Shown here: in pieces, positions 230 through 36,001 of the stretch
How positions within the stretch are numbered: the stretch's first letter is position 1
Layout: each line of letters opens with the position of its first letter
Source of the DNA: a virus
Virus record (IMG/VR): IMGVR_UViG_3300036398_000737
Span: 1-53,955 of that record
Length of the DNA: 53,955 bases
Direction: 5' to 3' (one strand)
The notes under the pieces: model-generated
Told to the model about the DNA's origin: nothing
What the model saw: the letters and a program-made list of their open reading frames with translations, nothing else
Database searches by the model: none
Translations under genes and position numbers: made by a program

Positions 230-289
230 GGTGTGTCTCTCAGGAACAAACGTAGTATGGCACGGGGGGAGGTGCTTAGCAAGCACCGA

Positions 290-313
290 TGTGGCACTTA
301 GGCGACTGTCACA
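290..313 (-). promoter_or_regulatory. 24-bp inverted repeat (copy 1), putative activator site
   Basis: Half-sites are TGTGGCA and TGTCACA with exactly 10 bp between. A -10-like CATACT follows 36 bp downstream on the minus strand, then the ATG at 229. The repeat overlaps the end of the 298-456 gene. Confidence 0.5.
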
Positions 314-657: not shown

Positions 658-758
658 AGTCTAAGAATATAAAAAGCACATCTAGATGGTGTGGGAAGGG
701 GTGAGTGGGGTGAAGCACATATTCTTGCACATAAGGCGAGCTCACGTGGTGGGTGGGT

Positions 759-920
759 GTCGAGAATGTGTCACGTATTCTTGCACATCTCGATACGTAT
801 GTGTATGTGCGTCGAGATTATAATATCGTGTGTATATGTCGTCGAGATGTGTATATCGTATATGCGATCTCGACGAATTGTGTATGTCTCGTCGAGATCT
901 TGATATCATCTAGTCGAGAT
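759..920. repeat. Repeat cluster 1, CGTCGAGAT type
   Basis: Copies of the core (C)TCGTCGAGAT lie at 759-765 (partial), 787-793 (partial, inverted), 810-818, 839-848, 867-876 (exact inverted copy), 888-898 and 911-920 (TAGTCGAGAT). Spacing is 22-30 bp with TA/TG-rich DNA between. The core contains the palindrome CTCG-T-CGAG. The 457-919 interval holds no convincing intact gene besides these repeats, the hairpin and the promoter of the 298-456 gene. Confidence 0.75.
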
Positions 921-1393
921 TACCAATTCTTGCTGAACACGAAACCATCCACGAAATCATAGTCATAATAGAGACCCTGATCCCAAGTTGCTTGCCAGTC
1001 AATGATCACGAACGAAGGAACGTTCAAACCATAACAATCAGTGGTGATTTCCTCTGCAAATGCTGCCTCAGAATCATAACGACCCTGATAGGCATCTTCA
1101 AAATTACCCAGATCATTTTCATCATAGAGTTCCAGGAATGCATCGATTGCATCCGAACCATAACGGTTACACAGTTCGGCATACAGATCCTGATTCTCCT
1201 CAGAGATTTCATTCTCCAAAGTATCATTGTTCAGGATACCTTTGACAGTCAGCAACTCAGTGTAGAATTGAGTATACTTCAGTTTGCCTTCCAGTTCATA
1301 CCCACAGGCACGAACGATTTCAGACATCTTAGCAGGCGGGTTTTGTGCCTGCATTTCGTTAACCTTGATCAGCAGTGCGTTGCCAGTCAGCAT
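920..1393 (-). CDS. cyAbrB N-domain fused to ArdA-like antirestriction domain, 157 aa
   Basis: Residues 1-50 (LTGNALLIKVNEM, IVRACGYE, FYTELLTVKG) match the N-terminal pattern of cyanobacterial cyAbrB regulators. Residues about 70-157 resemble the C-terminal part of ArdA: acidic, with FEDAYQGRYDSE, a VIIDWQATW segment and a final DGFVFSKNW. ArdA proteins mimic B-form DNA and inhibit type I restriction enzymes. The predicted charge is strongly negative, which suits that role. Promoter: TACATT -10 at 1418-1423 and inverted repeat 1454-1477. The fusion is inferred from pattern resemblance; either half could be a diverged relative. Confidence 0.6.
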   Translation of the reverse strand: MLTGNALLIKVNEMQAQNPPAKMSEIVRACGYELEGKLKYTQFYTELLTVKGILNNDTLENEISEENQDLYAELCNRYGSDAIDAFLELYDENDLGNFEDAYQGRYDSEAAFAEEITTDCYGLNVPSFVIIDWQATWDQGLYYDYDFVDGFVFSKNW

Positions 1394-1453
1394 GGTCGGT
1401 GTCTCAGGAACGAATGTAATGTATCAGGGGATGGGGGGCATTGCAACCCCCCT

Positions 1454-1477
1454 TGTGCCACTTGTTAAACCGTCACA
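1454..1477 (-). promoter_or_regulatory. 24-bp inverted repeat (copy 3)
   Basis: TGTGCCA and CGTCACA half-sites are separated by 10 bp. A TACATT -10-like box lies 36 bp downstream and the ATG at 1393 a further 25 nt on. A G/C hairpin (GGGGGG...CCCCCC) sits between repeat and -10 and may end the upstream gene. Confidence 0.55.
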
Positions 1478-1676
1478 CCTCCACCATCTCACGCAATTGG
1501 TTTCTGATATCAAAAAGTTCCATATGATCCATATCTGCGCTATCCATATCAACTGGCGCAAATTCACCAAGATTTACACTACCATCAGCATAAATCGGAG
1601 CATAATACAATTCATCACCATCTTCCTGAGAAAGAGTAAAAACGCAACCGTAGTTTGTGGCAGTGAGAAGAACCAT
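1473..1676 (-). CDS. Hypothetical acidic protein, 67 aa
   Basis: The protein begins MVLLTATNYGCVFTLSQ. The middle is acidic and beta-like, and the end is a helix (LFDIRNQLREMVEV). The ATG at 1676 is chosen because a TATGTT -10-like box (1702-1707) and inverted repeat 1738-1761 lie at the standard distances upstream. Its stop lies inside inverted repeat copy 3. Function unknown. Confidence 0.65.
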   Translation of the reverse strand: MVLLTATNYGCVFTLSQEDGDELYYAPIYADGSVNLGEFAPVDMDSADMDHMELFDIRNQLREMVEV

Positions 1677-1737
1677 TGAGCAATCCCTCAGGAACGAAAC
1701 CAACATAACCCGCTCGGCGGCAGATTACAACCCCCCT

Positions 1738-1761
1738 TGTGCCACTAGGAGAACTGGCACA
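1738..1761 (-). promoter_or_regulatory. 24-bp inverted repeat (copy 4, perfect arms)
   Basis: TGTGCCA-N10-TGGCACA, a perfect 7-bp inverted repeat, 36 bp upstream of TATGTT and ahead of the gene starting at 1676. Confidence 0.6.
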
Positions 1762-1872
1762 ATTCCCCTTGATTTGGGATTAATGCTCTGCTATCTTATA
1801 AGAAATCTAATGAGGGGAAGGGTATCCCTGCTGACGACAATACATCGCCACTCCCCCTGCCATAAAATATTC

Positions 1873-1902
1873 ATTCTCAATAAGAAACCCCTTATTGAGA
1901 AT
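1873..1902. repeat. Perfect 12-bp inverted repeat, AT-rich
   Basis: ATTCTCAATAAG and CTTATTGAGAAT flank a 6-nt loop. An 11-bp version of the same arms recurs at 2579-2607. The 1677-1935 interval holds this, inverted repeat copies 4 and 5 and no gene that I can see. It could act as a terminator after the 1936-2088 gene. Confidence 0.6.
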
Positions 1903-1911
1903 AGGGGATCT

Positions 1912-1935
1912 TGTGCCAATTCAAGAACTGTCACA
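1912..1935 (-). promoter_or_regulatory. 24-bp inverted repeat (copy 5)
   Basis: TGTGCCA-N10-TGTCACA, directly after the stop of the 1936-2088 gene. No clear -10 box or gene follows at the usual distance; the AT-rich inverted repeat 1873-1902 lies there instead. It may be a relic promoter. Confidence 0.45.
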
Positions 1936-2088
1936 TTAATCGAATGGATCGAACTCTTTCACCCTACAATGGAGATCTTCATTCGGTTCGAGTTGTAATA
2001 GTTCTCGCCAATTAATATGATCTAGATCTAGATCATCATAACACATAATGTCTAGTGTAACCTGTACAATGCGCTTTTGTGCTAGCAT
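1936..2088 (-). CDS. Small acidic protein, 50 aa
   Basis: The protein begins MLAQKRIVQVTLDIMCYDD, continues with DLDLDHINW and ends KEFDPFD. A beta strand is followed by an acidic segment, as in the partial gene at 1-101. TATAAT (2114-2119) lies 26 nt upstream of the ATG with TTGCAT 17 bp before it. The DNA repeat CTAGATCTAGATCAT encodes the DLDLDH stretch. No family recognised. Confidence 0.6.
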   Translation of the reverse strand: MLAQKRIVQVTLDIMCYDDLDLDHINWRELLQLEPNEDLHCRVKEFDPFD

Positions 2089-2113
2089 AGGTGTCTAGAT
2101 GCGATGTGTCTAG

Positions 2114-2142
2114 ATTATATCATGCATAATGACGATATGCAA
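2114..2142 (-). promoter_or_regulatory. Sigma-70-like promoter for 1936-2088
   Basis: TTGCAT-N17-TATAAT on the minus strand; -10 at 2114-2119. It overlaps the last codons of the 2120-2272 ORF. Confidence 0.5.
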
Positions 2143-2272
2143 GTGATTCGTAATCTTGCCCATCTCGCGCATAATCCTCGTCGAGATCCTGTGTATCTCG
2201 TGCATAATACTCGTCGAGATCCGCGTAATCGTTGCCTGTGTATGTGTAGTCGAGATCGTAGTCGTCGTACAT
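2120..2272 (-). CDS. Asp/Tyr-rich repeat protein, 50 aa
   Basis: ATG at 2272 opens a 50-codon frame starting MYDDYDLDYTYTG. Asp, Tyr and Glu dominate, and an LDExYA-type motif recurs (DLDEYYAR, DLDEDYAR) wherever the DNA repeat CTCGTCGAGAT is read on the minus strand. An extended -10 (TGC TACAAT, 2303-2308) lies upstream. The coding reading explains only the left part of repeat cluster 2, so the ORF could be a by-product of the DNA repeats. Confidence 0.4.
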   Translation of the reverse strand: MYDDYDLDYTYTGNDYADLDEYYARDTQDLDEDYARDGQDYESLAYRHYA

Positions 2273-2424
2273 AAGCTCGTCGAGATTTGTGAACGCTTTC
2301 GTATTGTAGCATAAAACTCGTCGAGATGCAATCTAGTCTAGATATAGGTCTCGTCGAGATTCATACCAATATATATGATGTCTCGTCGAATTTATGTGCA
2401 TCTCGTAACATAACTCGTCGAGAT
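2177..2424. repeat. Repeat cluster 2, CTCGTCGAGAT iterons
   Basis: Exact CTCGTCGAGAT copies lie at 2177, 2210, 2276, 2317, 2350 and 2414, with variants at 2247 (TAGTCGAGAT) and 2382 (CTCGTCGAA). The typical period is 29-41 bp, often 32-33. Secondary ATCTCG(T/C)GCATAAT elements precede several copies. All cores are in one orientation. The 2273-2742 interval also holds the promoters and inverted repeats listed here; I see no other gene in it. Confidence 0.8.
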
Positions 2425-2451
2425 TCTATCACGAACTTATAAGATTGTCAA
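2423..2451 (-). promoter_or_regulatory. Consensus sigma-70 promoter reading through repeat cluster 2
   Basis: TTGACA (2446-2451), 17-bp spacer, TAGAAT (2423-2428) on the minus strand. Its transcript would begin near 2416 and run through the repeats into the small genes at 2120-2272 and 1936-2088, or make a noncoding RNA. Confidence 0.6.
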
Positions 2452-2742: not shown

Positions 2743-3552
2743 ATGGCACAGGGAATCATCTACCTAATTATCAACAAGCAAAACGGGCACAAGTATGTTG
2801 GTCAGACCACCCAAGGAATGAATAAAAGGTGGCAACAACACATACAAGAAGCAATAAGAATGAGTGATAAACCCCTACATCGTGCCATGCGTAAATATGG
2901 CAATCACAACTTCATGATTAAAGAAATAGATGAATGTGATGAGAGTTTATTAAATGAAAGAGAAGAATATTGGATCAAACAACATAATACATTTAAAGAA
3001 GGATATAATGCTACAAGTGGTGGTGAACGTCCAATATTCAGTGAAGAAACAAAACAAAAAATAACAGAAAAAGCAAAGCAAAAGATACTTACATCAGAAC
3101 ATATTGAAAACATATCTATTGCATTAACTACAAAAGCAAAGATAGAACCTTGGGGTGCTCTTACAGAAGAGAACAGAGGTAATGGAAAACATTGTGGTCT
3201 TCCAATACGTGGAAAGAATTTAGAAACTGGAATCTGTACTGACTATGAGAATGCTCGTATGGCAGCATTATCTCTTACTGGTGATCCGAATAAAAATAGT
3301 AATATTCTACTTGCTGCCAGAAAAGATGGTACTGCCTATGGACACAAGTGGCAGATCTTAGAAGACAAATCTAAAAAGAAATCGGTATTTGCTGTAAATA
3401 AAAAAACAGGTGAAATAAGTGCCCGTTATGAATCTATTGCAGATGCTGTGAGAGTATTAGGTGGCTCTGGTAAAGGTACCGGATTGATTAAAAGTTTACG
3501 CAATCCTGGGCATTATAGTTGGAAAGGATATTACTGGTTTTATAACAAATGA
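2743..3552 (+). CDS. GIY-YIG endonuclease, 269 aa
   Basis: Residues 1-90 form a GIY-YIG nuclease domain: GIIYLI at 4-9, KYVGQT at 17-22, Arg29 in MNKRW and Glu in the NEREEYW helix are the expected active-site positions. A NUMOD3-like segment follows (SEETKQKITEKAKQK, about 100-115), and a NUMOD1/IENR1-like DNA-binding region ends the protein (about 213-269). This is the layout of phage homing endonucleases. It is the only plus-strand gene in the left half, is AT-rich with A-rich codon choice, and is flanked by AT-rich DNA, which suggests recent acquisition. No intron is visible, so it is probably free-standing. Confidence 0.88.
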   Translation: MAQGIIYLIINKQNGHKYVGQTTQGMNKRWQQHIQEAIRMSDKPLHRAMRKYGNHNFMIKEIDECDESLLNEREEYWIKQHNTFKEGYNATSGGERPIFSEETKQKITEKAKQKILTSEHIENISIALTTKAKIEPWGALTEENRGNGKHCGLPIRGKNLETGICTDYENARMAALSLTGDPNKNSNILLAARKDGTAYGHKWQILEDKSKKKSVFAVNKKTGEISARYESIADAVRVLGGSGKGTGLIKSLRNPGHYSWKGYYWFYNK

Positions 3553-11184: not shown

Positions 11185-11742
11185 TCATTCTTTGATCCAG
11201 AAACCATCATCAGTCATAGACCAACCACCTTCCATTGCTTGATCCCAAGTCATATTATCGGGACTAACTTTTTCAGTTCTCTTTTCAACTTTTTTGAGAA
11301 GATAAGAACCATCACCACGATCAACCCACTGAATTGTATCACCTTCTTTCAGACTTGATGCTTCTAACAAATCATCAGGAAATTGAATAAAGTATTCTCC
11401 ACTTACACCATCAACCTCAACAGGAAGTTGCCACTTAACTACTTTATCTTGCTTAGAATCAAGTTCTACACGTTTGTTGTAGTATTCTGCTTCACGCAAA
11501 TTATATTCACGGCATTTATTCTTTTCTTCATCTGCCTCACTATGTCCATTACCATTCAAAAGTGCCAGAAGGTCATAACAACGACCAGTGTGATGTTTGA
11601 AGCAATAGTATTCTTCTTCAACAACACGTTTGATAGTATCGTAAATTTCTTGTGGAGATGCTTCTGCGCTTGTTAAAGCATCTGTTACCCAAGTTTTAAG
11701 TTGTCCAAGAGAATACTTTTTATAATCAAACTCGGAGGTCAT
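11185..11742 (-). CDS. Protein with AbrB/MazE-like barrel in the middle, 185 aa
   Basis: Residues 1-90 are helical, with a His/Cys-containing segment (YYCFKHHTGRCYDLL). Residues about 100-150 read VKWQLPVEVDG, YFIQFPDDLLE, LKEGDTIQWVDRGDGSYLL, which is a SpoVT/AbrB-type swapped-hairpin barrel pattern (strand, FPDDLL turn, LKEGD, strand). The end is acidic and Trp-rich. The barrel may bind DNA; the long N-terminal helical part is unusual for that family. It overlaps 11726-11914. Confidence 0.62.
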   Translation of the reverse strand: MTSEFDYKKYSLGQLKTWVTDALTSAEASPQEIYDTIKRVVEEEYYCFKHHTGRCYDLLALLNGNGHSEADEEKNKCREYNLREAEYYNKRVELDSKQDKVVKWQLPVEVDGVSGEYFIQFPDDLLEASSLKEGDTIQWVDRGDGSYLLKKVEKRTEKVSPDNMTWDQAMEGGWSMTDDGFWIKE

Positions 11743-35917: not shown

Positions 35918-36001
35918 TGCGAGTAGGGAGACTTGAACTCCCACGAGGTTGCCCCCAACAGATTTTAAGTCTGGTGTGTCTACCGATTCCACCATACTCG
36001 C
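35918..36001 (-). tRNA. tRNA-Leu (anticodon TAA)
   Basis: Acceptor GCGAGTA pairs with TACTCGC, discriminator A. The anticodon loop of CAGACTTAAAATCTG reads TAA. The T arm GGGAG-TTCAAGT-CTCCC is standard, and the long variable arm fits class II. The 3' CCA is not encoded. Confidence 0.92.

What the first reader, a model, noticed from the sequence alone, without database searches (positions are those of the whole stretch)
759..2424. Two clusters of CTCGTCGAGAT iterons flanking the AbrB-ArdA gene
Cluster 1 (759-920, about 7 copies, including one exact inverted copy) and cluster 2 (2177-2424, 8 copies, period about 32-33 bp) share a core holding the palindrome CTCG-T-CGAG. They lie in gene-poor, TA/TG-rich DNA with inverted repeats and a strong outward promoter (2423-2451). 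Regularly spaced palindromic iterons next to AT-rich DNA are typical of replication origins or of arrays bound by a regulator.
Basis: partly seen in the sequence, partly recalled or inferred. Interest (0 to 1): 0.7.

Follow-up and report, generated by a model that had tools for sequence, protein, structure and literature searches.

The report
Cyanophage operator array with hidden microprotein
The repeated 9-11-base palindromes are regulatory sites packed into the promoter, leader and coding sequence of an overlooked 50-residue protein gene in a virus of photosynthetic bacteria; the same arrangement recurs in hundreds of related viruses, so they look like binding sites of a still unidentified switch protein for early virus genes rather than a replication origin.

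Summary
The repeats are real. All 7 exact copies of CTCGTCGAGAT in this 54-kb T4-like cyanophage fragment lie at 888-2424. Cluster 2 is not gene-poor: on the minus strand it is the promoter, leader and first part of a conserved, mostly unannotated acidic microprotein gene (2120-2272) with at least 539 relatives in IMG/VR. In 57 loci chosen without regard to the DNA word, 55 have a sigma70-type promoter before the gene; its spacer holds the full palindrome in 42 and a half-word in 10. A further copy sits just before the ATG in 46 of 57. Copies inside the ORF read in frame as L-D-E but are written CTCGACGAG 75% of the time (0.7% expected), while the protein is under purifying selection (pN/pS about 0.1). 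Some phages have changed the word everywhere in concert. Arrays like cluster 1 precede a tRNA-Leu gene in relatives. Best reading: an operator array for a dimeric DNA-binding regulator of early promoters. A linked MazE/AbrB-like protein (phrog_661) that co-occurs with the microprotein is the best, unproven candidate. A replication origin is not supported. New variant of a known kind.

The parts
2120..2272 (-). Conserved acidic microprotein gene, 50 aa (MYDDYDLDY...LAYRHYA)
   Evidence: homologues, indels in threes, pN/pS about 0.1
2303..2331 (-). Core promoter TTGCAT-17-TACAAT of the microprotein gene; palindrome CTCGWCGAG at 2317-2325 fills the start of the spacer
   Evidence: same layout in 52 of 55 promoter-bearing unbiased loci (42 full word, 10 half-word)
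2276..2284 (.). Palindrome copy 3 nt before the ATG
2177..2254 (.). Three in-ORF copies (2177-2185, 2210-2218, degenerate 2246-2254), read in frame as L-D-E or L-D-Y
2333..2422 (.). Upstream copies: 2333-2341 (degenerate), 2350-2358, 2382-2390 (one mismatch), 2414-2422
2423..2451 (-). Distal promoter-like site TTGACA-17-TAGAAT reading into the array
2114..2142 (-). Promoter-like TTGCAT-17-TATAAT overlapping the end of the microprotein ORF, in front of the next gene
1936..2088 (-). Next gene, 50 aa (MLAQKRIVQVTLDIMCYDD...), phrog_12516, conserved neighbour in 19 of 20 loci compared
920..1393 (-). ArdA-like gene between the clusters
759..920 (.). Cluster 1: palindrome-like words at 808, 838, 869, 888 and 910; counterpart of arrays that precede tRNA-Leu(UAA) in relatives
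817..845 (-). Promoter-like TCGACG-17-TATAAT inside cluster 1, with the word at the -35 place (weak)

Best explanation
Cluster 2 is an operator array of an early phage promoter. SHOWN by sequence: a conserved microprotein gene lies on the minus strand; its sigma70-type promoter carries the palindrome CTCGWCGAG in the spacer; more copies lie upstream, just before the ATG and inside the ORF; adjacent spacings favour about 2, 3 and 4 helical turns; the word is kept at synonymous sites and has been exchanged in concert in some phages. INFERRED: a dimeric DNA-binding protein binds the word, several molecules on one face of the helix, and so blocks or times transcription of this gene; the same protein controls sister arrays before two other small genes and, in relatives, a tRNA-Leu gene (the counterpart of cluster 1). 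GUESSED: the protein is the linked 57-63-aa MazE/AbrB-like protein; repression is likelier than activation because the word fills the spacer of a promoter that already has good -35 and -10 boxes.
For: Word in the promoter spacer in 52 of 55 unbiased promoter-bearing loci (42 full, 10 half) against 13% and 16% in random slices of the same leaders; promoter in 91% against 5.8% of shuffles; helical spacing R=0.42, jitter null at most 0.21; CTCGACGAG in 75% of LDE words against 0.7% expected, with pN/pS 0.08-0.13; concerted word switch in leader, spacer, ORF and second array; the same layout at tRNA-Leu promoters; array and microprotein present in the same 4 of 16 reference phages; out-of-sample confirmation in AG-345-F15; linkage of the MazE/AbrB-like gene.
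Against: No binding protein has been shown. The candidate is strongly acidic (net -8 to -11), has no array at its own gene, and its residues do not clearly change with the word. Sf-CH5 has the candidate and the microprotein but no array. Arrays before the other two small genes lack a good promoter. The spacing statistics are not corrected for phylogeny.
Confidence: 0.75

Rival explanations
1. Replication origin: the palindromes are iterons bound by an initiator.
For: Regular, helically phased repeats; one main cluster per genome in the early region of reference phages.
Against: No skew extreme at the array in three of four complete genomes (in S-T4 the minimum is 2.6 kb away), AT content not raised; several arrays per genome, each directly before a gene or tRNA; core copy placed to the base in a promoter spacer.
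Confidence: 0.06
2. MotA-like activation: the word replaces the -35 box at some promoters, so the binder activates middle genes while repressing the spacer-type promoters.
For: Cluster 1 has TCGACG-17-TATAAT; arrays before the other small genes show TCGACG-17-TAGATT or TACAAT; cyanomyoviruses lack motA and asiA (PMC2984593).
Against: Over 241 non-redundant sites outside the microprotein array the 20-bp offset holds only 8 -10-like hexamers against a mean of 2.9 per offset.
Confidence: 0.1
3. RNA-level regulation: the word in the mRNA leader near the start codon is bound by a translational repressor such as RegA, or pairs with another copy.
For: A copy sits 2-8 nt before the ATG in most loci, and arrays lie before start codons of two further genes.
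Against: The spacer and upstream copies lie outside a transcript started at the conserved promoter; the core is a DNA palindrome and both central bases occur; no Rfam match.
Confidence: 0.08
4. Host-encoded regulator: the word is the site of a cyanobacterial transcription factor.
For: The promoter is of host sigma70 type.
Against: Scan of 84,980 species genomes for doubled words found 76 records, none labelled cyanobacterial (single host sites would not be found); phages of the same host WH7803 differ in having it (S-T4, S-SKS1 yes; S-PM2 no); the word has switched in some phages.
Confidence: 0.12

Closest known systems
MazE/AbrB-type operators at core promoters (e.g. MazE6-operator, PMC9477884)
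   Same: A small protein of the swapped-hairpin kind is linked here; MazE6 binds an 18-bp operator bearing the -10 TANNNT motif (abstract)
   Different: Here there are multicopy 9-bp palindromes in the spacer, leader and ORF; no toxin gene; no operator at the candidate's own gene
T4 MotA box / middle promoters
   Same: Phage-controlled sigma70-type promoters with a short box near -30 (from general knowledge of T4)
   Different: The main promoter keeps a -35 box and has the word in the spacer; cyanomyoviruses lack motA and asiA (PMC2984593)
Multi-operator phage repressor systems (e.g. lambda operators, stoperators of mycobacteriophage L5; from general knowledge)
   Same: Repeated, oriented palindrome-like words at promoters and elsewhere in a phage genome
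   Different: Virulent T4-like phages, operators overprinted on a coding sequence with synonymous constraint, and also at a tRNA promoter
Iteron origins
   Same: Helically phased direct repeats of a short word
   Different: No AT-rich tract or skew shift at the array, no initiator identified, several promoter-linked arrays per genome

Membership tests
Promoter operator array | Repeated word placed at a fixed position in a promoter | tested here: met
   in the spacer, centre 12-13 bp upstream of the -10 hexamer
Promoter operator array | A protein binds the word | not testable with these tools
   No binding data
Promoter operator array | Word conserved beyond coding need | tested here: met
   CTCGACGAG in 73 of 97 LDE words against 0.7% expected
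Iteron replication origin | Skew extreme or AT-rich unwinding element at the repeats | tested here: not met
   by composition in four complete relatives; S-T4 skew minimum lies 2.6 kb away
Iteron replication origin | Initiator protein and replication start at the site | not testable with these tools
   Needs read-depth time course
T4 MotA-box middle promoter | Box replaces the -35 element upstream of a sigma70 -10 | tested here: not met
   Main array keeps a -35 box; -35 placement elsewhere only weakly enriched
MazE/AbrB swapped-hairpin protein (the candidate binder) | Sequence or fold match | tested here: inconclusive
   Pfam MazE E=0.0015, below cut-off, for one member; first three Foldseek hits MazE or MazEF but E at least 0.4 on a pLDDT 66 model
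MazE/AbrB swapped-hairpin protein (the candidate binder) | Autoregulation through its own operator | tested here: not met
   Nearest palindromes at least about 1 kb, mostly 1.5 kb or more, upstream of its gene

The most novel reading that the evidence does not exclude
A phage-encoded early-gene control circuit of T4-like cyanophages that lack MotA and AsiA: an acidic MazE/AbrB-like regulator, an acidic microprotein that antagonises or accompanies it, and a palindromic word written into promoter spacers, leaders, coding sequence and tRNA promoters, regulator and sites having switched together at least once.
Probability: 0.3. Interest if true: 0.78.

Novelty: new variant of a known kind. Interest (0 to 1): 0.6.

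Why it matters
How cyanomyoviruses time early and middle transcription without MotA and AsiA is described as unresolved (PMC2984593). This gives a concrete cis-element, present in isolates with sequenced genomes (P-SSM2, S-SRM01, S-T4, S-SKS1) and in hundreds of environmental genomes, with a testable regulator candidate. It also adds a conserved microprotein family that gene callers missed in S-T4 and S-SRM01, and a case where operator DNA and protein sequence are constrained together in the same codons.

Tried and rejected
Replication origin by GC skew and AT content: not supported. Host regulon by scan of genome contigs: no record labelled cyanobacterial. MotA-like -35 replacement: weak. ArdA-like neighbour as binder: set aside, because relatives of it were not seen among the annotated neighbours in S-T4 or S-SRM01 (not tested by search). 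Covariation of the MazE/AbrB-like protein with the switched word: inconclusive. Sequence search of solved structures for the candidate: only chance hits. Structure of the microprotein: pLDDT 60, uninformative. Literature: no description of the word or the microprotein was found in this library; of 87 papers holding the 9-mer as a string only 20 were listed, none about phages.

Full report
WHAT THE WINDOW IS. The window is a 53,955-base virus record, a fragment of a T4-like cyanophage: tail fibre, gp5-like baseplate hub and helicase genes match PHROGs, and DNA similarity is to Synechococcus and Prochlorococcus phages such as S-SRM01, DSL-LC03 and S-T4.

THE OBSERVATION. CTCGTCGAGAT with up to one mismatch occurs 10 times in the window, all at 838-920 or 2177-2424, against 0.28 expected. 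All 7 exact copies lie at 888-2424. Aligned copies from many phages show conservation of the word and little beyond it (these copies were collected by the word, so the core is enforced). The core CTCG-W-CGAG is an odd palindrome.

IT IS WIDESPREAD. Of 16 complete reference cyanophages, four carry the word: S-T4, P-SSM2, S-SRM01 and S-SKS1. It is clustered mainly in one early-gene region upstream of the baseplate genes (S-T4 shows the cluster at both ends of its record).

CLUSTER 2 CONTAINS A GENE. Reading the minus strand gives a 50-codon ORF (2120-2272) whose homologues share MYDDYDLDY at the start and LAYRHYA at the end. The gene is unannotated in S-T4 and S-SRM01 and annotated in S-SKS1 (SWZG_00191) and P-SSM2 (PCMG_00098). 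The window protein has no Pfam or PHROG match; the S-T4 form has one weak PHROG hit, E=0.018. In the 57 loci chosen by peptide or by the ArdA-like gene, pN/pS is 0.13 over the N-terminal 11 codons, 0.08 over the C-terminal 22 and 0.00 over LAYRHYA, so this is a protein-coding gene. Profile search finds it in exactly the four reference phages that carry the array; P-SSM2 is weak at E=0.03 and E=2e-4 with a larger profile.

WHERE THE WORDS SIT. In 97 of 104 non-redundant loci a promoter with 16-18-bp spacer lies before the gene, its -10 hexamer about 28-45 nt before the ATG in nearly all. Its spacer holds the full palindrome in 80 and a half-word in 13. In the 57 word-unbiased loci the figures are promoter 55, full word 42, half-word 10; random 20-nt slices of the same leaders give 12.6% and 15.8%. 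The word centre is mostly 12-13 bp upstream of the -10 hexamer. Another copy ends 2-8 nt before the ATG; 46 of 57 unbiased loci have a word within 20 nt of the ATG. Further upstream centres cluster near -82, -114 and -147. Adjacent spacings in 65 divergent leaders peak at 22-24, 31-33 and 40-43 bp; R=0.42 at 10.5 bp against at most 0.21 when jittered. This is not corrected for a tree, and periods from 10 to 11 fit about equally.

DOUBLE CONSTRAINT. Inside the ORF the word is in frame as L-D-E; in the leader the frame varies. Among 97 LDE tripeptides in unbiased loci 73 are written CTCGACGAG, where the codon use of longer genes in the same loci predicts 0.7%; other Leu and Glu codons in the same ORFs are far more mixed.

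CONCERTED CHANGE OF THE WORD. A group of phages (L150, L151, L158-L163) has no CTCGWCGAG in the leader but 6-9 copies of ACGAGA; the promoter spacer reads e.g. TTGCAC-TCTCTACGAGATCGTGA-TACAAT, and ORF codons and the second array carry the same new word. This is what a change in the binding partner's specificity would leave.

SISTER ARRAYS AND CLUSTER 1. In longer relatives the same palindromes lie directly before two other small genes. Behind the ArdA-like gene, where the window has cluster 1, ten relatives have the array followed by a tRNA-Leu(UAA) gene. Its promoter carries the word or the switched word in the spacer in nine of the ten (e.g. L169 TTTACA-AATCTCGTCGAGATGTGG-TATAAT). In the window no tRNA follows cluster 1; a tRNA-Leu(UAA) lies elsewhere, at 35918-36001. 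Cluster 1 is best read as an array whose tRNA is absent here (inference).

CANDIDATE REGULATOR. Comparing four array-positive with five array-negative genomes gave few genes with the right distribution; the only one resembling a DNA-binding protein is a 57-63-aa protein 3-8 kb downstream. It matches phrog_661 (unknown function) and marginally Pfam MazE_antitoxin; a low-confidence model has MazE or MazEF structures as its first three Foldseek hits, none significant. Array-negative references have at most weaker relatives (E 1e-10 or worse). In IMG/VR 15 of 20 contigs with at least 9 kb of upstream sequence carry the microprotein upstream on the same strand. As a test on phages not used before, references matching this protein were opened: AG-345-F15 has the microprotein with TTGACA-ATCTCGACTAGATCTGC-TATAAT; Sf-CH5 has the microprotein ending LAYKHYAC next to it but no array; S-CAM7 and ACG-2014f, with weak matches, show neither in the stretches examined. 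Against it as the binder: it is very acidic, lacks operators at its own gene and shows no clear residue change with the switched word.

ALTERNATIVES. An origin is not supported: AT fraction is that of the genome or lower, and in three of four complete genomes the array is not at a skew extreme. A host regulon is not supported by the genome scan, which looked for doubled words only. MotA-like use of the word as a -35 substitute is weakly hinted at. RNA-level action is possible for the copies near start codons but does not explain spacer and upstream copies.

SHOWN AND INFERRED. Shown by sequence: coding microprotein, promoter with the word in its spacer, spacing pattern, synonymous constraint, concerted word change, linkage of the MazE/AbrB-like gene. 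Inferred: that a protein binds the word, that it regulates transcription, that repression is the likelier sign. Unknown: the binder, and what the microprotein does. Searches found no earlier description in the literature library available; PMC2984593 leaves early and middle transcription control of cyanomyoviruses open, and PMC3037559 searched for sigma70, T4 late, Pho and NtcA promoters.

Noticed in passing
window 288-313, 514-539, 1452-1477, 1736-1761, 1910-1935: A second family of palindromic elements, roughly GTGNCAGTTCNNGAACTGGCAC, between the small minus-strand genes (family D3; the core with two mismatches is found 37 times against 10 expected). Function unknown.
   Followed up: no
window about 2490-2560; Sf-CH5 L557 19360-19405: A conserved element mostly 180-280 bp upstream of the microprotein ATG, roughly CTTRTG..TTAGCGAGCGTANCATAAGACGCGCAGTTTGTCAAG, found by a crude pattern in 45 of 104 loci and also in Sf-CH5, which lacks the array; on the opposite strand it holds TTGACA.
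   Followed up: partly
window 676-736, minus strand: A conserved non-coding block (CGCCTTATGTGCAAGAATATGTGCTTCACCCCACTCACCCC..ATCTAGATGTGCTTT) behind cluster 1, repeated in many relatives with the ArdA-like gene; perhaps a small RNA or terminator.
   Followed up: no
window 2743-3552, plus strand: A GIY-YIG homing-type endonuclease gene upstream of the array, on the strand opposite to the early genes.
   Followed up: no
window 11185-11742, minus strand: A 185-aa protein whose C-terminal part weakly resembles the MazE/AbrB-like candidate (E=6e-5); similar longer proteins occur in relatives.
   Followed up: no
S-T4 record MH412654.1, 2748-2935 and 174317-174504: The array appears near both ends of the linear record with identical spacing, as expected of a terminal duplication left by assembly.
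   Followed up: no
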